Source of the DNA: Natrinema pellirubrum DSM 15624
GTDB lineage: Archaea; Halobacteriota; Halobacteria; Halobacteriales; Natrialbaceae
Reading direction: 5' to 3'
DNA length: 64,000 nucleotides
NCBI RefSeq assembly: GCF_000230735.2
Contig: NC_019962.1
Span: 1,922,001-1,986,000 of the forward strand
Of the stretch, positions 1 to 48,974 are shown piece by piece. Position 1 is the stretch's first letter; every line of letters begins with the position of its first letter. Both the position numbers and the translations under genes were made by a program. The notes under the pieces were generated by a model. That model had not been told where the DNA came from and made no database searches. It was given only the letters and a program-made list of their open reading frames with translations.

Positions 1-841
1 GTTTTCGATATAGTTCTCGGCGTAGCTGGAACGCTCTGAGATACTGTGTCAGCTTATCTTTCGAGATACCTCGATGGGGCGAGAGCCACCGTCGCGTCAG
101 CGACGCGTGGCTCTCGCAGGTATTGACGTGGACCTCTTCGTCGGCGTATTCACCGTCACCGTGGACGACGTATTCACGGGTGAATGCGTCGTCCGCTTCG
201 AGTGGCTCGTACGCTCGAAAGACGTCAGTATAGACAGTCAACGGCTCCTCTTGGCGGTCTGCCAAGAGGAGTCGAATCGTCGATTCGTCGGCGGCTTTCG
301 CTGGGATCACGTACCGCTGTCCAGTTCCGCGGTCAGCGAGAATGAACACGGGTGGCTTGTCGCCATCATATAGACCACGTCCACGCGTGGACAGGCCACG
401 CGAGCGCGACGGTTGGTCGCGCTCGCGGCCTTTCTTCCCAGCAGAGACGTACACTTCGTCGATTTCGACTGGTCCGACAAGATCGAGGGAAGGCGCATCG
501 AGCGCTTCACCAGAGCGCTCGATGCGCCGGTGGATCGTCTTGTGTGTCACCTCGATTTCGTACTGTAGCTGCCGAAAACTCGTGTTAAAGCGGAGAAACG
601 CGTAGGTCGAGAACAGCCACCGACGGAGCGCAATCTTCGAGTGAGCGAAGATCGTGCCTGTCTTGTCGTTGAACGTGCGGTCGCAATTCTTACAGAGATA
701 TCGTTGAAACTCTCTGTAGCTGCCGTTTCTGACCGTACGGTCAGAACGGCAGCGAGGACAGGTAACACCGTCACGCCAGCGAACCTGTTGCAGCAGGTCC
801 ACTGCGATCGATTCCGACCCGAACACATCTAGCGGAATCAT
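1..841 (-). CDS. IS1595-family transposase, runs off left edge
   Basis: One open frame runs on the minus strand from an ATG at 841 to the window edge, so the C-terminus is missing. The N-terminus has a zinc ribbon (CPRC near residue 25, CKNC about 20 residues later), followed by the IS1595-type DDE domain beginning VEIDEVYVSAGKKG. The catalytic core is followed by the CHVNTCESH-like region typical of this family. Several perfect hairpins lie inside the reading frame, for example at 79-113 and 249-275. Upstream of the start, 850-880 contains a GC-rich inverted repeat that may belong to the element end. The gene looks intact as far as it can be seen. A decayed relative lies at 6746-7375. Family assignment is firm; the exact ISfinder name is not known to me. 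Confidence 0.85.
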   Translation of the reverse strand, partial: MIPLDVFGSESIAVDLLQQVRWRDGVTCPRCRSDRTVRNGSYREFQRYLCKNCDRTFNDKTGTIFAHSKIALRRWLFSTYAFLRFNTSFRQLQYEIEVTHKTIHRRIERSGEALDAPSLDLVGPVEIDEVYVSAGKKGRERDQPSRSRGLSTRGRGLYDGDKPPVFILADRGTGQRYVIPAKAADESTIRLLLADRQEEPLTVYTDVFRAYEPLEADDAFTREYVVHGDGEYADEEVHVNTCESHASLTRRWLSPHRGISKDKLTQYLRAFQLRRELYRK

Positions 842-965
842 TCGTGTCGGACACCGCTGACGCGGTGCCCTTGTCCTCTTCGACTCCACAGCGACCGCTC
901 AGTAGTATCAACAATCACCTACGGATGAGCGTCGTCGAAAGATAACTCAGAGTCCTTCGACAGGG

Positions 966-6745: not shown

Positions 6746-7375
6746 TCACAGCGTAGCTTTGATAGCGTGTTTGAGCGCTTCTCTTCCCGGTTTCCGCAGT
6801 AGTTTTCGTCGAAGCTGGAACGCTCGGAGATACTGTGTGAGCTTATCTTTTGAGACGCCTCGATGAGGCGAGAGCCACGGTCGCAGCAGCGATCCGTGGC
6901 TCTCGCAGGTATTGACGTGGACGTCTTCATCCGCGTGTTCGCCGTCGCCGTGGACGACGTATTCGCGGTCGAATGCATCGTCCTCGTTGAGTGGGTCGTA
7001 GGCACGAAATCCGTCCGTGTAGATAGTCAGTGGCTCCTTCTCGAGGTTTGCGAGAAGGAGCCGAACCGTCGATTCGTCGGCGGATTTCGCGGGGATCACG
7101 TACCGATTGTCGGTGCCGCGATCGACGATCGTGAACACCGGCGGTTTGTCCTGATCGTACGATCCTCGTCCACGCGTGGACAGGCCACGCGAGCGCGACG
7201 GTCGGTCGCGCTCGCGGCCTTTCAGCCCTGCAGAAACGTACACTTCGTCGATTTCGACGGGATCGACGAGGTCAAGTGAAGGCGCGTCGAGCGCCTTCGA
7301 AGCGCTCGACGCGCTGGTAGATCGTTTTGTACTGAACGTCGATTTCTAGCTGGAGTTGGCGAAGACTCGTGTTAA
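6746..7375 (-). pseudogene. Decayed IS1595-family transposase
   Basis: Translation from 7375 down gives TSLRQLQLEIDV, then a frameshift near 7300, then VEIDEVYVSAGLKGRERD and the rest of the DDE domain to a stop at 6746. It closely parallels the copy at 1-841. The zinc-ribbon N-terminus is absent because an ISH8 element abuts it at 7376. The frameshift lies in the loop of a hairpin with 11-bp GCGTCGAGCGC arms; compared with the intact copy the loop is two bases shorter. Confidence 0.8.
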
Positions 7376-7388
7376 CATTCGTCTTTAG

Positions 7389-8664
7389 CTAAGACTCACA
7401 CCTCGGTTGTGTAGCGGTAGCGAGCGTCTCTTGCAAGATCGGTCGTTGTTGGTGGATCTTCTGAGCATCCTCGATCAGCCGCTCCAGCAACGGCGGTGGC
7501 GAGTAGCCAAGGTACTCTCCGAGTTCGTGGAGGATGAGCTGGGCGTGCGACCGAAAGGTCGCCGCCCAGCGTTCCGGCGGAAACACGATCTCATCGTTGG
7601 CCTGCTCGGTGACCAGATCCAACAGCTCACGACTCACCAGCAGTGACAGCAACGCCGCGTACAGCAAGATTTCTACGACATCACGGTTGCTTGTGTCGAA
7701 TTCGTCCAGTTCATACTGCGTCTTCAGCTCACGGAACAGCGTTTCTACCTCCCATCGACACCGATACAGCGTTGCTAGATCTTCCGGGAGGAACTCTTCT
7801 CTCGGTAAATTCGTGATGTACAGATGGTAGTCGTCGGCGTCCTCGTTGCGGACGCCGACGACGCGGAAACGCTTCGTATCCAGTGACTGCGTTCCATTGT
7901 ACGGCCCGCGTTTGAACTCCGCTTCGACCTCTACGTCGATGTACTTCCGCGAGAGATCATCGACCACATCGTGGATCTGCTTGCCCTCCAAGGGAATGGC
8001 GCGGACCGCGCCATTCCCGCAATTCTGCCGTTATCACCGGATTTGCGTTCTGCTTCAGCCGACTCACGAAGTAGCCGTCGTTCTCGTCGATCAATGCAAA
8101 GCGACGGTACTTGAAGTACGCTAGATCGAGCAGAACGAGCCGTCCGCACAGCCACGAACCCGTCTTGAACAACGTGCTGTCGTGCGTTTTCTCGTCGGTC
8201 ACGTCGATGCGTTCGATCGTCTGATCGGTGGCATTGTGGAGCAGGTGGAGCTTCGCTCCAGCCTGCTCCTCGTGGCGGGCTTGGAACTCCTCAGAGAGGA
8301 ACTCGTGTAACCGCAACACGGTACCATCAGCGATCATTACGTCTCTGAACCGGTCGATATCAGCGTCAACAGCGTCAGGGACAGCGACCTCGTCGAGGCC
8401 ACGCTCGACGAGGTCGCAGAGGTACTCTGCGAGTGACGGCGTCAGCCGATGGTAGAAACCCCCGGGAGAGATCGTCTCGTCAGCAGTCGAATTGTAGCTG
8501 CGTCTGAACCCAGCGAGTGTTCGGCTCTCGCCTGCGGCGAAGCCGAACACGAGCGCCCACACGAGGACTGGAATCTGAAGCTTGCCATCCCGTTCGACCA
8601 CGCCGAGTTCCTCGGCGTGCTCTTCGAGGAACTCGGATGGAAACAGTGTAGTAAGCCGACGCAT
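7389..8664 (-). pseudogene. ISH8 transposase, one frameshift
   Basis: Two frames join into one IS4-type DDE transposase of about 430 residues. The N-terminal part (8664 to about 8010) includes VMIADGTVLRLHEFL (first Asp), KTHDSTLF and LIDENDGYFVSRLKQNAN. The C-terminal part (about 8005 to 7389) includes LYRCRWEVETLFRELKTQYEL, the YREK-like signature with the catalytic Glu. One extra base at the junction (after LREWRG, before IPLEGKQIHD) breaks the frame. The junction lies inside the perfect palindrome at 7992-8018. Confidence 0.85.
7992..8018. repeat. Perfect 27-bp palindrome at the ISH8 frameshift
   Basis: Thirteen-base arms around a single central A at 8005. The right reading frame on either side differs by one base here, so the palindrome and the mutation coincide. 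Confidence 0.9.
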
Positions 8665-9158: not shown

Positions 9159-9536
9159 ACGATCACTCGCAGAGGCGGCGCTACGGCGGGGTACCGCCAC
9201 GTACATCCAGTGGAGGTCACGCCAGATACTTAATCGCTCTCTTCGGCTGAAATAGTCCCTCCCTCTCGATAGAACTCTTCCATTCGTCTACCTCGTTCCA
9301 GTAAGTCAGAGAATGTCACGAGATTCACTCGTGTAAGATGGCTTTCAATTATGCGTAGTCCGTCTCGCTGCTCCTGAGTGAGGTCGGATCCAATGACTAC
9401 TGTACCGCGAGGTTTGAGAACCTGAACTCCTTGTTCGTTTTCGATATAATTTGAAGTTGTTCAGATTCTTGAATATAGTTCTGGAGTTGAACAATTGCTT
9501 TTGTCAGTCCCGCTCTGGGGACCCAGTTATCGTGAG

Positions 9537-10233
9537 GGTAGTGTTCAGATAAGCTGATTCCATGCGAAGGCGAACGCTTGGAGCCAATTTTCGACGGTGT
9601 CTGCTTCGGCATGGCTAAAACAGTTTGAGAACTGGTTAGTTCTGCGTTTTAGTTCTCGAAATACACGTTCAACACTGTTCCGATTACCGTGTTTTTCGTA
9701 TCTGTAATCGAGGCCATGTCGGTGGAGTGCCGCTTGCAGCCACGGTGCAGAATCGACGAGAAAGAGCGCGTCATCGACGAGATGTTTGTCGCGGAGTTCC
9801 GCGAGGAACATCTCGGTAATTGCTTGATTTCTCGTCGGTGAGAGCTTGACGTGTAGCAAGCGGTTTGTTGCGGGATCAACGGCGGCGTACAGCCAGAATC
9901 GTTCGTCATTCAGTTGGATCACGGTCTCGTCAACCGCGACGTGATCCGGATTTGCGCCATCAAGCGGCTGTAAATCTGCCTTCTGCACCCAGTTGTGAAC
10001 GGTCGATCGACAGCGTTCGACACCCAACCTCTCGAGAATAGAGATGGTATCCGAAAGTGATAGTCCAGCCAGATGGAGCCGGATACCGAGCTTCATCGCG
10101 GGCTCGGGTGTCGCCTCTCGCTCCAGAAAATCTAACTCGAAGCAGTCGCTACCTCTGTTGAGGCGGGCGGTTTCGAGCATAGACCACTCACAAATCGTTC
10201 CACCTCACCTTTCATCCTCATCTGAACACCGCC
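9537..10233 (-). mobile_element. IS6-family insertion sequence, copy 1, in the Shedu gene
   Basis: A 697-bp element with ends GGTAGTGTTCAGATAAG and GGCGGTGTTCAGATGAG (reverse strand), flanked by a perfect 8-bp direct repeat ATCGTGAG at 9529-9536 and 10234-10241. Eight bases is the usual IS6 duplication. A near-identical copy lies at 41899-42595. Confidence 0.92.
9545..10180 (-). CDS. IS6-family transposase
   Basis: The intact 211-residue transposase has an N-terminal HTH-like region (LAGLSLSDTISILERLGV, TVHNWVQKAD) and the DDE core: DHVAVDETVIQ (first Asp), LFLVDSAPWL (second Asp) and GNRNSVERVFRELKRRT (Glu). Length is slightly below bacterial IS6 transposases but normal for haloarchaeal ones. 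The element is flanked by a clean target duplication, so insertion was probably recent. Confidence 0.92.
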   Translation of the reverse strand: MLETARLNRGSDCFELDFLEREATPEPAMKLGIRLHLAGLSLSDTISILERLGVERCRSTVHNWVQKADLQPLDGANPDHVAVDETVIQLNDERFWLYAAVDPATNRLLHVKLSPTRNQAITEMFLAELRDKHLVDDALFLVDSAPWLQAALHRHGLDYRYEKHGNRNSVERVFRELKRRTNQFSNCFSHAEADTVENWLQAFAFAWNQLI

Positions 10234-11152: not shown

Positions 11153-11284
11153 TCAAGTATCATTCAAGCCACGTTCATCAAGTATTGTAGTAAGTTCGTC
11201 TCGGATCAGTGCACGGAGCTCTGCCTCTGATCGATTATTATCATTCCTTAGAGCAGCAATTTCTTCATCTATTGAGGATGTCAT
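11153..11284 (-). pseudogene. Detached C-terminus of the beta-CASP gene
   Basis: A 43-codon frame continues as DEEIAALRNDNNRSEAELRA and ends GLNDT. Removing the ISH11-type element at 11274-12342 and one copy of its 9-bp repeat joins this segment in frame to the beta-CASP gene: ...RIQAID|EEIAALRN.... It is the original coiled-coil-like tail of that protein. An ATG at 11284 within the element end could still start it, but that is doubtful. Confidence 0.8.
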
Positions 11285-12342
11285 AGAACAGTTCTCATAC
11301 CAGAGAGCAGGGTGAACGCTGAGGTGGTATGAGCCCAGCGACCCTGCAAGAGAATCCTACGGTAGAGACGTTCTTCAATGTCGTGGAAACTGAGACACTA
11401 GCGCTGTTTGAGCATCTCTCCTTCGAGTTTCTCGAAGAGTTCGACGTGTTCGCCCCGGCGCAGACGGGGCGAACACGAGTTCACAAACCACCCGAAATGA
11501 TGCGTGGGTTTCTGCACTGCTACTACAAGGATATCTACGGCATTCGTCCGGTTGCACGAGAACTGAACAACACAGTCGTCTGGCTCAGCTGTGGCTTCGA
11601 TCGACCGCCGTCCAGAGACGCGGTCGATCGCTTTCTCACCGATCTCGAACACGTCATCGACAAGATTTTCGACCACCTCGTCGAGCAGGCCGCCTTGCGC
11701 GGCCTGCTCGACTTGACCTACTCGATTGATTCGACAGACGTGAGAACGATGCCTGCCGATCCTGACGCATCGAAATGCTACGATCCAACGGCTGAAGAGT
11801 ACTACTACGGCTACGGCTGCACGATCGTTTCGACCGGCTCGAAGATCCCGATTGCAGCGGAGTTCACCGAGAGCAAACAAGCACCAGAGGAGACGGCGAT
11901 GCGCGTCACCCGTGACGCGCTCGCCGTCGCTAAACCGATATGGATGCTTGGTGACAGCGCCTACGATACACTTGACTGGCACGACCACCTGCTGGCCGCA
12001 GGGGTCGTGCCAGTCGCCCCCTACAACCCACGGAACACTGATGACCCGAAGGACATCGAGTACAGGGTCGAAGACCGCATCGAACAACACAGCGAGGACG
12101 TTCAGCTGAAGCAATCGACGCTAAACGAGACGTACAACCGCCGAACAGGCGTCGAACGAACCAACGAATCAGTCAAGGGCTGCGGCCTCGGGCGAACGCA
12201 CGCCCGAGGCCGCGTCCACGCACGAGCACAGGTGTTCCTCGCGCTGTGCCTTCGCCTCGTTATTGCAATCACCAACTATGAACGCGGAGACAATCCGGGA
12301 AGCACGATCATCACGGTGTGACAAGAGTTCTATGACACCCTC
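11274..12342 (+). mobile_element. ISH11-type insertion sequence, copy 1
   Basis: A 1069-bp element with ends GAGGATGTCATAGAA and GAGGGTGTCATAGAA (reverse strand) and a perfect 9-bp direct repeat TCATCTATT at 11265-11273 and 12343-12351. Size, 15-bp ends and a single transposase gene fit ISH11-type elements. Copies 2 and 3 lie at 21996-23064 and 35504-36573, and a 151-bp non-autonomous relative at 48320-48470. Confidence 0.9.
11329..12321 (+). CDS. ISH11-type (IS5-like) DDE transposase
   Basis: The intact 330-residue transposase has LTYSIDSTDVR (first Asp, about residue 136), IWMLGDSAYDTLDWH (second Asp, about 206) and RRTGVERTNESVKGCGL (Glu, about 275). It carries at least five perfect hairpins inside the coding sequence: 11446-11476 (12-bp arms), 11680-11712 (14-bp arms), 11900-11920, 11978-12017 and 12182-12213 (13-bp arms). 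These stems are kept in the diverged copies 2 and 3. Confidence 0.92.
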   Translation: MSPATLQENPTVETFFNVVETETLALFEHLSFEFLEEFDVFAPAQTGRTRVHKPPEMMRGFLHCYYKDIYGIRPVARELNNTVVWLSCGFDRPPSRDAVDRFLTDLEHVIDKIFDHLVEQAALRGLLDLTYSIDSTDVRTMPADPDASKCYDPTAEEYYYGYGCTIVSTGSKIPIAAEFTESKQAPEETAMRVTRDALAVAKPIWMLGDSAYDTLDWHDHLLAAGVVPVAPYNPRNTDDPKDIEYRVEDRIEQHSEDVQLKQSTLNETYNRRTGVERTNESVKGCGLGRTHARGRVHARAQVFLALCLRLVIAITNYERGDNPGSTIITV

Positions 12343-21995: not shown

Positions 21996-23064
21996 GAGCG
22001 TGTCATAGAAAGCGTCACGTACGAAGCAGCAGGGTGCGGAAAGTGTGTCCAGCACAACCGCGACCCTGCAAGACGTTGCTTCGGTCGATGAGTTTTTGAA
22101 TGCAGCGGCTACGGAAACAGTTCCGCTGTTTGAGTATCTTGAGTTCGAGTTTCTACTGGAGTACGACGTGTTCGCCCCCGCTCGCCGGGGGCGAACACGA
22201 GTTCACCAGCCACCTGATCTCTTTCGCGCCTTTCTCCATTGCTACTACAAGAACATCTACGGAACACGCCCAGTCACGCGAGAACTCCAGCACGGCCTTG
22301 TCTGGTACTACTGCGGACTCGACAAACCGCCATCGAGAGACACCATTGACCGGTTTCTCACTGATCTCGAACACATTATCAACGATGTCTTCGACAGGCT
22401 CGTCGAGCAGGCCGCCGTCCGCGGCCTGCTCGACTCGACGTACTCTATCGATTCGACGCACATCGAGGCGATCCAGTACAACGACGCTGCCTCATGGAAC
22501 TACGATCCAACAGCCGAAGAGTACTACTACGGCTTCGGCTGTACGATCGTTTCAACCGGTGCAAAGATCCCGATAGCAGCGGAGTTCACACAGGCCAAAC
22601 AAGCAGACCAAGAGACGGCGATGCGCGTCACGGGTGACGCGCTCGCCGTCGATACACCGATCTGGATGCTTGGAGACAGCGCCTACGACATCCTCGATTG
22701 GCACGACTACCTGCTGACCGCAGGAGTCGTGCCAATCGCTCCGTACAACCCGCGAAACACTGACGACCCGAAAGACATCGAGTACAGGGTCGAAGACCGC
22801 ATTGAGGAACACAGCGAGGACGTTCAGCTGAAACGATCCATCTTGGACGAGACGTTCAACAACCGGACAGGAATCGAACGAACCAACGACGCAGTCAAGG
22901 ACTGCGGCCTCGGGCACGTCCGCGCCCGAGGCCGCGTCCACGCACGAACAGAAGTGTTCGTTGCGCTATGTCTTCGGATCGTCATTGCAATCACCAACTA
23001 CGAGCGAGGACACGATCCAGGACGTGAGATGCTCAAGCTATGAGTTGGATTCTATGACACGCTC
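21996..23064 (+). mobile_element. ISH11-type insertion sequence, copy 2
   Basis: 1069 bp, both ends GAGCGTGTCATAGAA, flanked by the 6-bp direct repeat CTGGGC (21990-21995 and 23065-23070). Confidence 0.92.
22045..23043 (+). CDS. ISH11-type transposase, copy 2
   Basis: The intact 332-residue DDE transposase (GTG start at 22045) is about 75-80 percent similar to copy 1. It keeps STYSIDSTHIE, WMLGDSAYDILDWH and RTGIERTNDAVKDCGL. The internal hairpins are retained with paired changes; for example 22168-22198 has 13-bp arms where copy 1 has 12. Confidence 0.92.
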   Translation: MSSTTATLQDVASVDEFLNAAATETVPLFEYLEFEFLLEYDVFAPARRGRTRVHQPPDLFRAFLHCYYKNIYGTRPVTRELQHGLVWYYCGLDKPPSRDTIDRFLTDLEHIINDVFDRLVEQAAVRGLLDSTYSIDSTHIEAIQYNDAASWNYDPTAEEYYYGFGCTIVSTGAKIPIAAEFTQAKQADQETAMRVTGDALAVDTPIWMLGDSAYDILDWHDYLLTAGVVPIAPYNPRNTDDPKDIEYRVEDRIEEHSEDVQLKRSILDETFNNRTGIERTNDAVKDCGLGHVRARGRVHARTEVFVALCLRIVIAITNYERGHDPGREMLKL

Positions 23065-35503: not shown

Positions 35504-36573
35504 AAGGGTGTCATAGAAGACTTCTCACACCGTGATCACGGTACTTCCCGGATTGTCTCCTCGTTCGTCGTTGGTGATTGCGACGACGAGGCGCAGACAC
35601 AGCTCGAGGAACACTTGTGCTCGCGCGTGGACGCGGCCTCGGGCGTGGGTGCGCCCGAGGCCGCAGTCTTTGACTGATTCATTGGTTCGTTCGACGCCCG
35701 TACGACGGTTGTACGTCTCGTCTAGGGTCGATTTCTTCAACTTGACGTCCTCGCTGTGTTCCTCGATACGGTCTTCAACCCTGTACTCGATGTCTTTCGG
35801 CTCGTCAGTGTTTCGCGCGTTGTATGGGGCGACTGGCACGACCCCTGCGGCCAGCAGGTGGTCGTGCCAGTCGAGCGTGTCGCAGGCGCTGTCACCAACC
35901 ATCCACATTGGTTTCTTGACGGCGAGCGCGTCACGTGTGACGCGCATCGCCGTCTCTTCTGGCGCTTGTTTACTCTCGGTGAACTCGGCTGCAATCGGGA
36001 TCTTTTGTCCGGTCGAGACGATTGTACAGCCGTAGCCGTAGTAGTACTTGTCCGCGGTGGGATCATAGCAGTTTGACGCATCTTGGTTGGCAGGCATCGC
36101 TCTCACGTCGGTCGAATCGATGCAGTAGGTCAAGTCGAGCAGGCCGCGGCGGGTGGCCTGCTCGACGAGTCTATCGAAGACATCGTCAACGACATGTTCG
36201 AGGTCGGTGAGAAATCGATCGACCGCCGTCGAGAGACGCGGTCGATCGAAGCCACAGCTGAGCCAGACTATCGTGTTCTGAAGCTCTCGCTCAACGGGAC
36301 GGATACCGTAGATGTCCTTGTAGTAGCAGTGGAGAAAACCACGCATCAACTCTGGTGCCTCGTGGTCTCGTGTTCGCCCCGTCTCCGCCGGGGCGAACAC
36401 GTCGAACTCTCTGAGAAACCCGAAGGAGAGATGCTTCAAACAACGCTAGCGTCTCTGTCTCCACGACATTGAAGAACGACTCTACCGAAGGATCATCTTG
36501 CAGGGTCGCTGAGTACATGCCACCTCAGCATTCACCCTGCTCTTTGGTGTGGTAACTGTTCTATGACGCCCTC
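35504..36573 (-). mobile_element. ISH11-type insertion sequence, copy 3
   Basis: 1070 bp with ends AAGGGTGTCATAGAA and GAGGGCGTCATAGAA (reverse strand). No flanking direct repeat, so an old copy or rearranged site. Confidence 0.85.
35525..36518 (-). pseudogene. ISH11-type transposase, copy 3, frameshifted
   Basis: The N-terminal frame MYSATLQDDPSVESFF...LALFE continues in another frame as HLSFGFLREFDVFAPAETG to the end. One extra A near 36438 (in TTTGAAGCATCTC) breaks it. The catalytic segments IDSTDVRAMPA, MVGDSACDTLDWH and GVERTNESVKDCGL remain. Confidence 0.85.
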
Positions 36574-36599: not shown

Positions 36600-38125
36600 A
36601 CGCTGAACAGGCGCAATACCACGGCCTGAAGGCCGTGGATACGCGCCGTCACTCCGTGACTCATTCCACAGTCCCCGACAGGGCTGGATATTCTATTGTT
36701 CTTAATCCAAACTTTTACAATTTGAGCGAGTATAAGTGATTATAGAGGCGTTCCACGAATGCTGGAAGTCCACCGCACCCACCGAGCGAAAATCCGCAAC
36801 CACTCACAGGTAGCGGACTCGCTCGACCGGCATGGCTGGAGTGTCAGCAAACTCTGGAACGTCGCCAACTACCACTCCCGAGAAGTCTGGGAGGAGACGG
36901 GCAAAATTCCGGACCATAAGGAATTGAAAGACGAGTTGAAAGGTCACGACAAGTACAAGGGACTGCACAGTCAGTCCAGTCAGCGGGTTCTGGAGGAACT
37001 CGCTGAAGCCTTCCACTCGTGGTACTCCAGTGACGATGACAGGGACAATCCGCCCGGCTACCGCAAAGAAAACTACTACGACTCGCAAGGCCGTCGCGTC
37101 CACGAAGAACACCCACGCAGCACGGTCACGTGGAAACAGAACGGCATCCGTCACGACACCAAGAATAACCGAGTTCGACTCTCGAAAGGGGCGAACCACA
37201 AGGAACACCCTCGAGCATGGGAATACATCCTTGTCGAGTACGAGACACGACCTGGAGTCACGGTCGAGAACCTGCAACAAGTCCGCGCCGTCTACGATCA
37301 GCAGAACGAGCGGTGGGAACTCCACCTCGTCTGCAAAGACGAAATCGAGACACCCAACGCTCCCGGCGAGGAGACAGCAGGCATTGACCTTGGTATCAGC
37401 AACTTCGCCGCTGTCGCATACAGCACAAACGAAGCCGACCTGTACCCCGGCAACCGCCTAAAGCAAGACGGGTACTACTTCCTGAAAGAAATCGCTAACT
37501 GTGACGACAGCGGTGGTGAACGGGCCGCCCGCTTGCACCACAAGTGGTCAGAACGCCGTACTCACTTCTTCCACAGTCTCGCCAAACACATCATCCAACG
37601 ATGCGTGGAGAACGGCGTTTGCCGCATCAACGTCGGGGACTTGGAGGGGGTTCGAGAGGACGAACACGGCGAGTCGAAAAACTGGGGTAAGCACGGCAAC
37701 CTCGACCTACACGGGTGGGCATTCGATCGCTTCACCAAGATTCTCACGTACAAGGCGAAGGTCGAGGGTATCGAAGTCGTAGAAGTGTCTGAACGGGACA
37801 CGAGTAAGACGTGTTGTATTTGCGGTAGGGAAGACGATAGTCAGCGTGTTCAACGCGGCTTGTACGTGTGCGAGGCGTGTGACGCGGCGTTCAACGCTGA
37901 CGTGAACGGGGCTGAGAACATCCGTCTCAACATCAACGACGAAAGTAACTCCGAGTCTGCACCCAGTTTGGGTGGAGATAGGAGTACCGGCTGGTTGGCA
38001 CAGCCCGAAGTCTACCTTCATAGCCTCTCCTGCGGATTCCAACCGCAGACAGAGGTGGTGGACTGCAAACCCTAATATCCCAACCGCGGTCGGGATTCCT
38101 CCGCCTTCAGGCGGAGGAGGATGTC
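36600..38125 (+). mobile_element. IS200/IS605-type element with TnpB only, copy 2
   Basis: Left-end hairpin CCACGGCC/GGCCGTGG at 36617-36636. Right-end hairpin CCTCCGCC/GGCGGAGG at 38100-38116, followed by GATGTCAA. The only gene is tnpB. Boundaries are set by these hairpins. Confidence 0.8.
36759..38075 (+). CDS. tnpB: TnpB RNA-guided endonuclease, copy 2
   Basis: The 438-residue protein has an N-terminal HTH-like region (about 1-60), then TAGIDLGISNFAAVAY (RuvC Asp), INVGDLEGVREDE (region of the second acidic residue), zinc ribbon CCICGRED...CEACD, and FNADVNGAENIRLN (last Asp). The frame is open and the ends are present, so it may be active. In the second motif the Glu follows DL rather than preceding it as in copy 1; this is seen in some haloarchaeal TnpB proteins. 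Confidence 0.9.
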   Translation: MLEVHRTHRAKIRNHSQVADSLDRHGWSVSKLWNVANYHSREVWEETGKIPDHKELKDELKGHDKYKGLHSQSSQRVLEELAEAFHSWYSSDDDRDNPPGYRKENYYDSQGRRVHEEHPRSTVTWKQNGIRHDTKNNRVRLSKGANHKEHPRAWEYILVEYETRPGVTVENLQQVRAVYDQQNERWELHLVCKDEIETPNAPGEETAGIDLGISNFAAVAYSTNEADLYPGNRLKQDGYYFLKEIANCDDSGGERAARLHHKWSERRTHFFHSLAKHIIQRCVENGVCRINVGDLEGVREDEHGESKNWGKHGNLDLHGWAFDRFTKILTYKAKVEGIEVVEVSERDTSKTCCICGREDDSQRVQRGLYVCEACDAAFNADVNGAENIRLNINDESNSESAPSLGGDRSTGWLAQPEVYLHSLSCGFQPQTEVVDCKP

Positions 38126-39269: not shown

Positions 39270-39960
39270 GCGCTCACGCGCCTGCCACCGCGATGTCCCT
39301 GCATCGCGGTTTTCCGACGACACCGACCGACTAGATCTATCTGCGCGCTCTCGCTCGCGCCTTCGTGAGCGCCCATCTGGGCGCGAGCGAGAGCGGGCCT
39401 GAATGCGGTGTCCCAACCAGCACCGCGCGGTGTCCTGCCGAGCGGAGCGAGGCAGGACTCGAGGCGCGAACGGAGTGAGCGCCTCGGCGACCCGCCCGGA
39501 GCGAGCGGCCAGCTTTAAGCCGTTTCTCGTGTCCGGCCCGGACTGCGGGTTCCAGCGCGACTGTCGTCGAGAACGCGCGCCGCGGTGTGGCGCGCGACAG
39601 CGCAGGCGGCACCAAGCGCTGGAACGCGAAAGCCCGCGAGGAGCGCAACCGAAAACGCGCTTAATGCTGGCGTCGAGACCAGATTCATTGGAGCCCGGAA
39701 CGGTGAGCGACGTCAGGAGCGAACCGCAGCCCGGAATGGTCGGTCGCGAGCGACGCGGAGGGCGGCACGCGGCGAGCGGGGCGGGCCGATACCCAAGCGC
39801 GAGCAACCGACGCAACAGCAGCCCGATCAGTCCACATGGGTGGGATCAAAAGGGGCTGGCGCACTCGAGGAACCCCGCCGACGCAAGCACCGCAACCTGT
39901 GAGGTGCGCAGCGAGACGCGGGACTCGAGCGTGCCAAGGGCTTTCTCCCTGTTATCAAAA
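39270..39960 (+). other. Hairpin-rich G+C-rich stretch without a credible gene
   Basis: No ORF here has haloarchaeal composition. Strong stem-loops: 39346-39361 pairs with 39380-39395 (16 bp perfect). Several hairpins share loops of the type GAGCGGAGCGA with different stems (near 39431-39453 and 39460-39484). The 3' part, about 39855-39945, can fold as a long three-tier arm (GGC..CTCGAG/CTCGAGCGTGCC, CCCGC/GCGGG, GCACC/GGTGC). It could be a structured RNA, leader or replication-linked region. Confidence 0.45.
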
Positions 39961-41895: not shown

Positions 41896-41898
41896 ACG

Positions 41899-42595
41899 GG
41901 TAGTGTTCAGATAAGCTGATTCCATGCGAAGGCGAACGCTTGGAGCCAATTTTCGACGGTGTCTGCTTCAGCATGGCTAAAACAGTTTGAGAACTGGTTA
42001 GTTCGGCGTTTTAGTTCTCGAAATACACGTTCGACACTGTTCCGATTACCGTGTTTTTCGTATCTGTAATCGAGGCCATGTCGGTGGAGTGCCGCTTGCA
42101 GCCACGGTGCAGAATCGACGAGAAAGAGCGCGTCATCGACGAGATGTTTGTCGCGGAGTTCCGCGAGGAACATCTCGGTAATTGCTTGATTTCTCGTCGG
42201 TGAGAGCTTGACGTGTAGCAAGCGGTTTGTTGCGGGATCAACGGCGGCGTACAGCCAGAATCGTTCGTCATTCAGTTGGATCACGGTCTCGTCAACCGCG
42301 ACGTGATCCGGATTTGCGCCATCAAGCGGCTGTAAATCTGCCTTCTGCACCCAGTTGTGAACGGTCGATCGACAGCGTTCGACACCCAACCTCTCGAGAA
42401 TAGAGATGGTATCCGAAAGTGATAGTCCAGCCAGATGGAGCCGGATACCGAGCTTCATCGCGGGCTCGGGTGTCGCCTCTCGCTCCAGAAAATCTAACTC
42501 GAAGCAGTCGCTACCTCTGTTGAGGCGGGCGGTTTCGAGCATAGACCACTCAAAAATCGTTCCGCCTCACCCTTCATCCTTATCTGAACACCGCC
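41899..42595 (-). mobile_element. IS6-family insertion sequence, copy 2
   Basis: 697 bp, nearly identical to 9537-10233, with the same ends GGTAGTGTTCAGATAAG and GGCGGTGTTCAGATAAG. The flanks (ACCCCACG and GTTCGTTC) do not match, so this copy probably took part in a deletion or cointegrate resolution. Confidence 0.9.
41907..42542 (-). CDS. IS6-family transposase, copy 2
   Basis: An intact 211-residue protein identical to that at 9545-10180 as far as I can compare. The DDE residues are in DHVAVDETV, LFLVDSAPW and SVERVFRELK. Near-identity of the two copies implies recent movement within this replicon. Confidence 0.92.
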   Translation of the reverse strand: MLETARLNRGSDCFELDFLEREATPEPAMKLGIRLHLAGLSLSDTISILERLGVERCRSTVHNWVQKADLQPLDGANPDHVAVDETVIQLNDERFWLYAAVDPATNRLLHVKLSPTRNQAITEMFLAELRDKHLVDDALFLVDSAPWLQAALHRHGLDYRYEKHGNRNSVERVFRELKRRTNQFSNCFSHAEADTVENWLQAFAFAWNQLI

Positions 42596-47632: not shown

Positions 47633-48974
47633 ATGACGAACGCTGACACTCATATCGAGACGCTTCGAGAGAAGATTCGCAATGGCGACCGAGAGCTTGA
47701 TGAGGCTAACCAGAACGCCCTGATCGAATTCAGTGACGAACTTTTCCTCATCCCCAGCCAAGTCGGCGATTATCGGCACCTCAAACTTCTTCGACATAAT
47801 GTGAGGATGGCTGAGCATGCTGGTAGTCCCGTAGAGGCGCTTGAAGATGAGGACGCTGCGAAAGAGATCGTTCGCTGGATTCACCGCACATACGACAACG
47901 AGGAAACCAACCGGGATTACCGAGTCGCGCTGAAACAATTCGGACGGCGAGTCACTGACGAGAACGGAGATGATCCGCCTGAATCGATGGAGTGGATTCC
48001 ATCGAACACTCCGAGTACGTACGACCCGGCTCCAGAACCCAGTAACATGCTTCAGTGGAAGAAGGACGTGCTTCCACTGATCGACGCTACTCGAAACCCT
48101 CGTGATGCAGCCCTCATCGCTGTTGGATGGGATGCAGGACCGCGGTCAGGTGAGCTTCGGGACCTCACGGTTGGGGATATTACTGACTACGAACACGGCT
48201 ATCAGATCACTGTTCAAGGGAAAACAGGGCAGCGAACGGTTCCACTCATTCCCAGTGTTCCGTTTCTCCAGCGATGGCTTGCAGCCCATCCGAGCGATGA
48301 TCCACAGGCACCTCTTTGGTAGCGTGTCATAGAATACGTCTCATACCCTCAACTTGGCGATTATACAGCTTCCAATTCGCGTGTAATCCTATGAATTTCG
48401 TCAGCCATGGGTTTTGCTCAAGGGCGAAACCGTGAACAACGCCTCCTGAGAACTATTCTATGACACGCTCCTTTGGAGTAAATTGAGCGAGCCAGAGGCA
48501 CCGAGCTACAACGCTCTTCGAACAGCTGTGAAGGACGCCGCAGATCGAGCAGGAGTGAGTAAGCCAGTGACGTTCACAAACTTCCGTAAGTCCAGCGCGT
48601 CCCACTTGGCTTCACGCGGACTGAATCAAGCTCATATAGAGGATCACCATGGTTGGACTCGGGGGAGCGATGTTGCTTCTCGATACGTTTCTGTATTCGC
48701 CGATGATACTGGCCGAGAAGTCGCTCGTGCCCACGGATTAGAAATAAGCGAGGCAGATGAACCCGAATCTACCGCACCAATCGAATGCCCTCGATGTCAT
48801 CAACGAACGCCGCGTGAAATAGACCAGTGTCTTCATTGCCGACAAACGATAGATAAGGAAACCGCACTCCAACAAGAACAAACCTGCGACTGGTGTGGAT
48901 CCGTTATCTCAAGCTACTCCGATCATATTCCGAACTGTCCTAGCGTTGAGATAGCCCAAGAAGAACCGTACTAA
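47633..48974 (+). pseudogene. Tyrosine recombinase (integrase), split by a 151-bp MITE
   Basis: Joining 47633-48319 and 48477-48974 gives one 394-residue protein. The N-terminal SAM-like core-binding part runs about 1-120. The catalytic domain has AGPRSGELRDLTVGDI (Arg), FTNFRKSSASHLASRG (His/Arg-type box) and HHGWTRGSDVASRYVSVF (His and the Tyr). The C-terminus has two zinc knuckles (CPRCHQRT...CLHC, CDWCG...C). Excision of the MITE and one CTTTGG restores ...APLW|SKLSEP.... The insertion separates the Arg from the Tyr, so this copy should be inactive. It probably served the att site at 51472. Confidence 0.9.
48320..48470. repeat. 151-bp MITE of the ISH11 type
   Basis: Ends TAGCGTGTCATAGAA and GAGCGTGTCATAGAA (reverse strand) match ISH11-type copy 2. 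Flanked by 6-bp direct repeats CTTTGG at 48314-48319 and 48471-48476. No coding capacity. Confidence 0.92.

What the first reader, a model, noticed from the sequence alone, without database searches (positions are those of the whole stretch)
11446..12213. Long perfect hairpins kept inside transposase reading frames, with paired changes between copies
The ISH11-type transposase contains stems at 11446-11476 (12 bp), 11680-11712 (14 bp) and 12182-12213 (13 bp). The diverged copy 2 keeps all three; for example 22168-22198 has 13-bp arms because substitutions on both sides changed together. Copy 3 (35525-36518) keeps them too. IS1595 copies (79-113 and 6863-6900 region; 249-275) and ISH8 (7834-7861, 8391-8415) also carry strong internal stems. 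This exceeds codon needs and suggests selection on mRNA or ssDNA structure, e.g. limiting transposase translation.
Basis: seen in the sequence. Interest (0 to 1): 0.65.

Follow-up and report, generated by a model that had tools for sequence, protein, structure and literature searches.

The report
Hairpins built into haloarchaeal transposase genes
In salt-loving archaea, the transposase genes of many unrelated jumping DNA elements carry several near-perfect hairpins, spelled out by the choice of synonymous codons; this looks like a shared and apparently undescribed way to hold back transposase production.

Summary
The ISH11-type transposase has five perfect stems (11-14 bp), not three. Across haloarchaea, six IS families (ISH11, ISH28-like IS5, IS4/ISH8, ISH3, IS1595, IS66) carry 2.6-4.7 perfect stems of at least 10 bp per kb. 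Synonymous-codon shuffles give 0.04-0.13. A blind scan of 864 kb found 54 stem clusters; 53 lay in DDE transposase genes, including two IS630 genes not used to define the pattern. TnpB genes, ordinary genes, bacterial IS66, E. coli ISs and DDE_Tnp_1 transposases of non-halophilic archaea lack them. Stems keep their positions, vary as pairs, decay in broken copies and avoid wobble-to-wobble codon phasing. This indicates selection on structure, not codon needs.

The likeliest mechanism is at the mRNA level: multiple stable hairpins (-23 to -36 kcal/mol in ISH11), some over start codons in ISH3/ISH8, hold back translation. It fits published Halobacterium data (abundant transposase mRNA, proteins mostly undetected; three of the four detected mobilome proteins are TnpB). 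The mechanism is inferred, not shown: tolerance of G.U over A.C is only 1.2-1.9-fold, and one IS5 subfamily lacks stems. A DNA-level or antisense-RNA role is not excluded.

The parts
11278..12338 (+). ISH11-type insertion sequence, copy 1, bounded by GTGTCATAGAA-type terminal inverted repeats (left end with one mismatch)
   Evidence: pattern search; annotated relative ISH11 in Halobacterium NRC-1, 92% identity
11329..12321 (+). ISH11 transposase ORF, 330 aa, DDE_Tnp_1
11445..11477 (+). hairpin S1, 13 bp, loop 7, -26.8 kcal/mol
   Evidence: kept in 71 of 78 family representatives
11598..11630 (+). hairpin S2, 11 bp plus an inner 3-bp stem across a bulge, -23.0 kcal/mol
   Evidence: kept in 52 of 78
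11680..11712 (+). hairpin S3, 14 bp, loop 5, -30.3 kcal/mol
   Evidence: kept in 76 of 78
11974..12015 (+). hairpin S4, 13 bp plus an A bulge plus an inner 5-bp stem, -36.2 kcal/mol
   Evidence: kept in 73 of 78
12182..12213 (+). hairpin S5, 13 bp, loop 6, -30.8 kcal/mol
   Evidence: kept in 72 of 78
22000..23060 (+). ISH11-type copy 2 (71% protein identity to copy 1); stems 22167-22199, 22402-22434, 22695-22738, 22904-22935 and an extra 10-bp stem 22510-22542
35508..36569 (-). ISH11-type copy 3, frame broken near 36435; all five stems kept
2..898 (-). IS1595 transposase ORF (cut by the window edge) with four stems: 79-117, 245-271, 399-427, 492-528
6749..7345 (-). second IS1595-type copy with four stems: 6868-6906, 7032-7062, 7188-7216, 7282-7314
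7389..8664 (-). ISH8/IS4 transposase, frame split in two ORFs, with five stems: 7830-7862, 7992-8018, 8384-8417, 8517-8550, 8603-8636
36759..38075 (+). control in the window: TnpB (IS605-type) gene with no stem of at least 10 bp
9545..10180 (-). control in the window: IS6/IS240-like transposase (second copy 41907-42542) with no stem of at least 10 bp
48324..48466 (.). 143-bp MITE with perfect ISH11-type terminal inverted repeats, no ORF and no stem of at least 8 bp

Best explanation
Haloarchaeal DDE insertion sequences carry several short, very stable hairpins inside the transposase coding sequence, kept by selection acting mainly through synonymous codons. Shown: the excess, the fixed positions, paired changes, decay in broken copies, restriction to DDE transposases, and occurrence in at least seven IS families. 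Inferred: the hairpins act in the sense mRNA, where they hinder ribosome loading or elongation (or create a pause that limits output), so the element is transcribed but makes very little transposase. In ISH3 and ISH8 some copies also bury the start codon in such a hairpin. Helpers that melt or bind RNA, such as the Sm-like protein SmAP1, could release the block.
For: Stem density 2.6-4.7 per kb against 0.04-0.13 in synonymous shuffles in six families; core ORFs 0.159 against 0.100; non-halophile DDE_Tnp_1 0.096. TnpB: 6 stems of at least 10 bp in 35 kb, none of 12 or more. Blind scan: 53 of 54 clusters lie in DDE transposase genes. The excess holds only for spacers of 20 nt or less, with no excess of direct repeats. 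Longer spacers mostly hide an inner helix offset by a bulge, as expected of a folded strand. Local RNA folding z = -4.9 to -8.0. Stems over the start codon in 21 of 41 ISH3 and 19 of 52 ISH8 genes. Doubly varying pairs are 78.1% Watson-Crick against 56.5% shuffled; slid partners 24-32% against 87.6%. Broken copies: 3.04 against 4.09 stems per kb in the nearest intact copy. Inside stems a synonymous change giving G.U is seen more often than one giving A.C: 1.40 vs 0.75% p=0.03, 1.27 vs 1.02% p=0.38, 1.52 vs 0.89% p=0.019. An ISH11-type MITE with the same ends has no stems, so hairpins go with the gene, not the ends. Literature: in Hbt. salinarum mobilome mRNA is high but only 4 of 33 proteins were detected, three of them TnpB; deleting SmAP1 lowers ISH3 and IS4 transposition (PMC10134880).
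Against: No expression, ribosome or structure-probing data were available. The G.U preference is small (1.2-1.9-fold) and marginal once columns rather than cells are counted (p=0.05 to 0.13), whereas a purely RNA-level constraint would usually tolerate G.U more. An IS5 subfamily of 11 sequences has almost no stems (0.18 per gene), and IS6 elements have none or one, so stems are not required of every haloarchaeal IS. ISH11 and IS66 do not cover their start codons. A fourth detected mobilome protein comes from ISH2, which was not examined. The count tests treat related sequences as independent.
Confidence: 0.55

Rival explanations
1. Strand-symmetric RNA role: hairpins are needed in both the transposase mRNA and its antisense RNA, for example as kissing loops or as protection from antisense pairing.
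For: G.U and A.C changes are both about 10-20 times rarer inside maintained stems than outside and differ by less than 2-fold. Antisense RNAs to transposases are common in Hbt. salinarum (PMC6523106) and Hfx. volcanii (PMC5892119).
Against: In published plasmid and IS antisense systems (own knowledge) loops are the conserved part and stems carry bulges that help pairing; here stems are the conserved part. The slight G.U preference points to the sense strand.
Confidence: 0.15
2. DNA-level role: hairpins form in single-stranded or supercoiled IS DNA and act on replication, transposition or recombination.
For: Near-symmetric intolerance of both wobble types; stems conserved as DNA sequence.
Against: Stems sit in the transposase ORF; a MITE with ISH11-type ends has none. 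Long spacers hide bulged inner helices. No shared sequence between stems of different families. Start-codon hairpins in ISH3 and ISH8 have an obvious RNA reading.
Confidence: 0.15
3. Ribosome pause sites that help the transposase fold or act in cis on its own element, rather than repression as such.
For: Several stems per ORF; the first stem of ISH11 lies 116 nt downstream of the start. Published ribosome pile-up at the 5' end of an ISH3 transcript (PMC10134880).
Against: Positions differ between families; no data on pausing or cis preference in haloarchaea were found.
Confidence: 0.1
4. Mutational bias: template switching or arm-to-arm conversion keeps palindromes perfect without selection.
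For: Would give paired changes and no wobble preference.
Against: Fails to explain restriction to DDE transposases of haloarchaea, the lack in TnpB and core genes, the avoidance of wobble:wobble phasing, or the decay in broken copies.
Confidence: 0.04
5. Chance or codon bias of GC-rich genes.
For: None after controls.
Against: 33-106-fold over synonymous shuffles, 10-40-fold over dinucleotide-preserving synonymous shuffles.
Confidence: 0.01

Closest known systems
Structured transposase mRNAs of IS10, IS50 and IS200 (own knowledge; IS200 and IS10 work is cited in PMC10134880)
   Same: RNA secondary structure that keeps transposase translation low; start-codon occlusion, as in part of ISH3 and ISH8
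   Different: Those are one structure at the 5' end of one element; here 3-7 near-perfect hairpins lie along the whole coding sequence, in many unrelated families of one archaeal class, and ISH11 and IS66 leave the start free
Post-transcriptional repression of haloarchaeal transposases by SmAP1 and antisense RNA (PMC10134880, PMC6523106, PMC5892119)
   Same: Same elements, same outcome (mRNA without protein); RNA-level control proposed there
   Different: Those papers name trans factors; the passages read do not describe hairpins in the coding sequences (term searches in PMC6523106 and PMC5892119 found no 'hairpin')
Genome-scale ordered RNA structure of some RNA viruses (own knowledge)
   Same: Coding sequence shaped by structure through synonymous sites
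   Different: Here only short local hairpins (spacer 20 nt or less), in DNA mobile elements
Palindromes of IS200/IS605 elements and PATEs in Haloquadratum (PMC3119063)
   Same: Hairpins in haloarchaeal mobile elements
   Different: Those lie near the element ends; TnpB genes lack internal stems

Membership tests
ISH11-type IS5-like insertion sequence | DDE transposase domain | tested here: met
   PF01609 E=4e-26
ISH11-type IS5-like insertion sequence | close relative annotated as ISH11 | tested here: met
   92% identity to ISH11 of Halobacterium NRC-1 pNRC100
ISH11-type IS5-like insertion sequence | terminal inverted repeats | tested here: met
   GTGTCATAGAA at 11278 (1 mismatch) and 12338
ISH11-type IS5-like insertion sequence | passes a curated NCBIfam IS5 model | tested here: not met
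   best curated models are below their cut-offs (IS1182 61.9 of 270 bits, IS5_2 26 of 140), so 'IS5-like ISH11 group' rests on the annotated relatives
IS10/IS200-type control by mRNA structure at the start codon | hairpin covers the ribosome-binding site or start codon | tested here: inconclusive
   ISH3 21 of 41, ISH8 19 of 52, IS5s 12 of 75, but ISH11 1 of 130 and IS66 0 of 10
IS10/IS200-type control by mRNA structure at the start codon | structure lowers transposase translation | not testable with these tools
   needs expression data
Functional RNA structure (covariation) | paired substitutions beyond expectation | tested here: met
   78.1% vs 56.5% (maximum of 200 shuffles 58.1%) in 86 doubly varying pairs; slid partners 24-32% vs 87.6%; no tree-aware test was run
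Functional RNA structure (sense strand) | G.U tolerated over A.C | tested here: inconclusive
   1.2-1.9-fold, p from 0.019 to 0.38 depending on sample
Genome-scale ordered RNA structure | pervasive structure including long-range pairing | tested here: not met
   excess limited to spacers of 20 nt or less; a weak 3-fold excess at 101-200 nt was not followed up
Rfam RNA families | match above the gathering score | tested here: not met
   no match in the window

The most novel reading that the evidence does not exclude
A class-wide, convergently acquired hairpin code: in haloarchaea unrelated DDE insertion sequences recode their transposase genes to carry 3-7 hairpins that a host RNA factor (for instance SmAP1 or a structure-specific RNase) recognises by shape, giving one shared switch for many transposons.
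Probability: 0.25. Interest if true: 0.92.

Novelty: new variant of a known kind. Interest (0 to 1): 0.8.

Why it matters
It links an unexplained finding in haloarchaea (transposase mRNA without detectable protein) to a concrete cis feature that can be tested with synonymous recoding. It would show that unrelated transposons in one host class converged on the same self-restraint. Because stem clusters pointed almost only to DDE transposase genes in a blind scan, they may also be a practical sequence signature for finding IS elements in haloarchaeal genomes.

Tried and rejected
Chance or codon usage: rejected by two kinds of synonymous shuffle. Palindromic protein-binding sites: disfavoured, since no sequence is shared between families and long spacers contain offset inner helices. 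General property of DDE transposases: rejected, since non-halophilic Halobacteriota, pNGR234a and E. coli K-12 elements and five bacterial IS66 genes lack the stems. Long-range RNA structure: little sign. Purely mutational upkeep: disfavoured by phase and by decay in broken copies. An early count without opportunity correction gave equal G.T and A.C (144 vs 139); correcting for the base mix of the arms changed this to a slight G.U preference. Salinibacter pSR35 was fetched as a halophilic bacterial control, but its only annotated transposase is a 234-nt CDS, so it was not scanned. Whole-gene MFE comparison timed out and was replaced by local windows. Literature searches found no description of these hairpins in open-access text; subscription papers could not be searched.

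Full report
Setting. The window is part of a haloarchaeal chromosome (G000:C1:1922001-1986000, 57% G+C). It holds three ISH11-type copies (11278-12338, 22000-23060, 35508-36569; ends), two IS1595-type copies, one broken ISH8, two IS6/IS240-like copies and a TnpB gene.

The observation. A scan for perfect inverted repeats (arms of at least 10 bp, spacer 3-20) finds 36 stems in 64 kb, most of them within the six DDE transposase genes of ISH11, IS1595 and ISH8 type. The ISH11 gene has five, not three. The two IS6-like genes and the TnpB gene in the same window have none. The paired change claimed for copy 2 is real: the innermost pair of S1 is G-C in copy 1 and C-G in copy 2, and in the family the two states are split about evenly (29 to 28).

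Is it more than chance? In 103 unique ISH11 coding sequences there are 4.23 stems of at least 10 bp per gene against 0.094 after synonymous codon shuffling, and 2.6 against 0.007 at 13 bp or more. In sets thinned to below 95% identity, stems per kb (shuffle in brackets) are ISH11 4.30 (0.091), ISH8 3.89 (0.061), ISH3 4.43 (0.133), IS1595 4.67 (0.113), IS66 3.81 (0.036), ISH28-like IS5 2.64 (0.038); long ORFs of core chromosome 0.159 (0.100). A synonymous shuffle that also keeps codon-boundary dinucleotides leaves 10-40-fold. At least two stems are present in 76/78, 44/45, 35/35, 18/18, 18/18 and 29/44 genes of these families.

Who has it. On annotated plasmids of Halobacterium NRC-1 and Haloarcula marismortui, stems fall in ISH3, ISH8, ISH11, ISH28, ISH10 (IS66) and related transposases and not in ISH7A, TnpB, integrases, RepH or the gas vesicle genes listed; IS6 elements carry one. 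A blind scan of 864 kb (window, 400 kb of G000, 400 kb of a second genome, the latter chosen partly around transposase hits) for three or more stems close together gave 54 clusters. Fifty matched family seeds; three more proved by Pfam or NCBIfam to be DDE transposases, two of them IS630 and one DDE_Tnp_1; one is an intergenic repeat. Twenty-eight TnpB genes of the same class have 6 stems in 35 kb and none of 12 bp. Twenty DDE_Tnp_1 transposases of non-halophilic members of the phylum have two stems in all. IS1, IS5, IS30 and IS911 of E. coli, IS21, IS110 and IS5 of pNGR234a, and five bacterial IS66 have none of 10 bp or more within the genes. So the trait belongs to DDE elements of haloarchaea and occurs in several unrelated families. 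It is not universal: one IS5 subfamily of 11 sequences has 0.18 stems per gene.

Anatomy. The excess is confined to spacers of 0-20 nt and falls to background beyond 25, apart from a weak and unexplained excess at 101-200 nt; direct repeats show no excess (95 vs 101); arms are 10-16 bp. Many of the longer spacers contain an inner helix offset by a bulge or mismatch, e.g. S4 of ISH11 is 13 bp, an A bulge, then 5 bp. ISH11 hairpins have -23 to -36 kcal/mol each, and local RNA folding is 4.9-8.0 standard deviations below synonymous shuffles in a representative of each of six families. In 16 sampled genes the protein would permit a 12-bp stem at 6-18 places, of which 1-5 are used. Only 7 of 55 conserved helices pair third codon positions with each other, as expected if stems are made by adjusting third positions to fixed first and second positions.

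Evolution. In maintained stems synonymous third-position transitions are roughly 10-20 times rarer than outside. Where both columns of a pair vary, 78.1% of cells are Watson-Crick against 56.5% with shuffled partners; sliding the partner by 1-3 bases gives 24-32% against 87.6%. These controls do not correct fully for shared ancestry. Broken copies carry fewer stems than their nearest intact relative (3.04 vs 4.09 per kb, 24 pairs), which speaks against upkeep by mutation alone. One ISH11 relative (L093) has a 330-residue reading frame without internal stops and no stems.

RNA or DNA? A sense-RNA constraint should tolerate G.U more than A.C. Corrected for opportunity, G.U-producing changes occur in 1.40, 1.27 and 1.52% of cells and A.C-producing ones in 0.75, 1.02 and 0.89% in three overlapping samples. 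The direction is consistent but small. Start codons are covered by a stem in 21 of 41 ISH3 (9 bp or more) and 19 of 52 ISH8 (10 bp or more) genes, but not in ISH11 or IS66. A MITE with ISH11-type ends has no stems. I therefore favour the mRNA, at 0.55, and leave antisense or DNA roles open.

Fit with published data. In Hbt. salinarum mobilome mRNA is abundant, yet only 4 of 33 mobilome proteins were detected, three of them TnpB and one from ISH2. A ribosome pile-up at the 5' end of an ISH3 transcript was seen, and deleting SmAP1 lowered ISH3 and IS4 transposition (PMC10134880). The authors inferred translational repression by trans factors. The hairpins offer a cis basis: the families with stems are largely those without detected protein, and TnpB, which lacks stems, is detected. 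This is a correlation drawn from a published summary, not a test.

Verdict. A real, class-wide pattern under selection, whose mechanism is inferred. No description was found in the searched open-access literature; subscription literature was not searched.

Noticed in passing
48324-48466: 143-bp MITE with perfect ISH11-type terminal inverted repeats and no coding sequence or stems.
   Followed up: partly
36759-38075: TnpB (IS605-type) gene beside the third ISH11 copy, without internal stems.
   Followed up: partly
9536-10180 and 41898-42542: Two IS6/IS240-like copies (99% identical over the 300 nt compared) without stems; IS6 elements on other haloarchaeal plasmids have about one each.
   Followed up: partly
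39346-39395: 16-bp perfect inverted repeat with an 18-nt spacer, in no DDE transposase found here.
   Followed up: no
L525, L535, L542 (IS5 subfamily of 11): Haloarchaeal IS5 subfamily about 55% identical to ISH28 that almost lacks stems; a natural comparison for the function of the stems.
   Followed up: partly
L093 (about 2001-2990): ISH11 relative with a 330-residue open frame and no stems: structure can be lost while the frame stays open.
   Followed up: partly
L255 32073-32113 and other ISH3 starts: Hairpin of 10-13 bp with the transposase start codon in its 17-20-nt loop, one arm upstream of the gene.
   Followed up: partly
L492 1040-1320: Intergenic repeat with strong hairpins in genome G052, the only non-transposase stem cluster in the blind scan.
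   Followed up: no
four IS families, spacers 101-200 nt: Weak 3-fold excess of inverted repeats at this distance (63 vs 20); may be one conserved family-specific pair counted many times.
   Followed up: no
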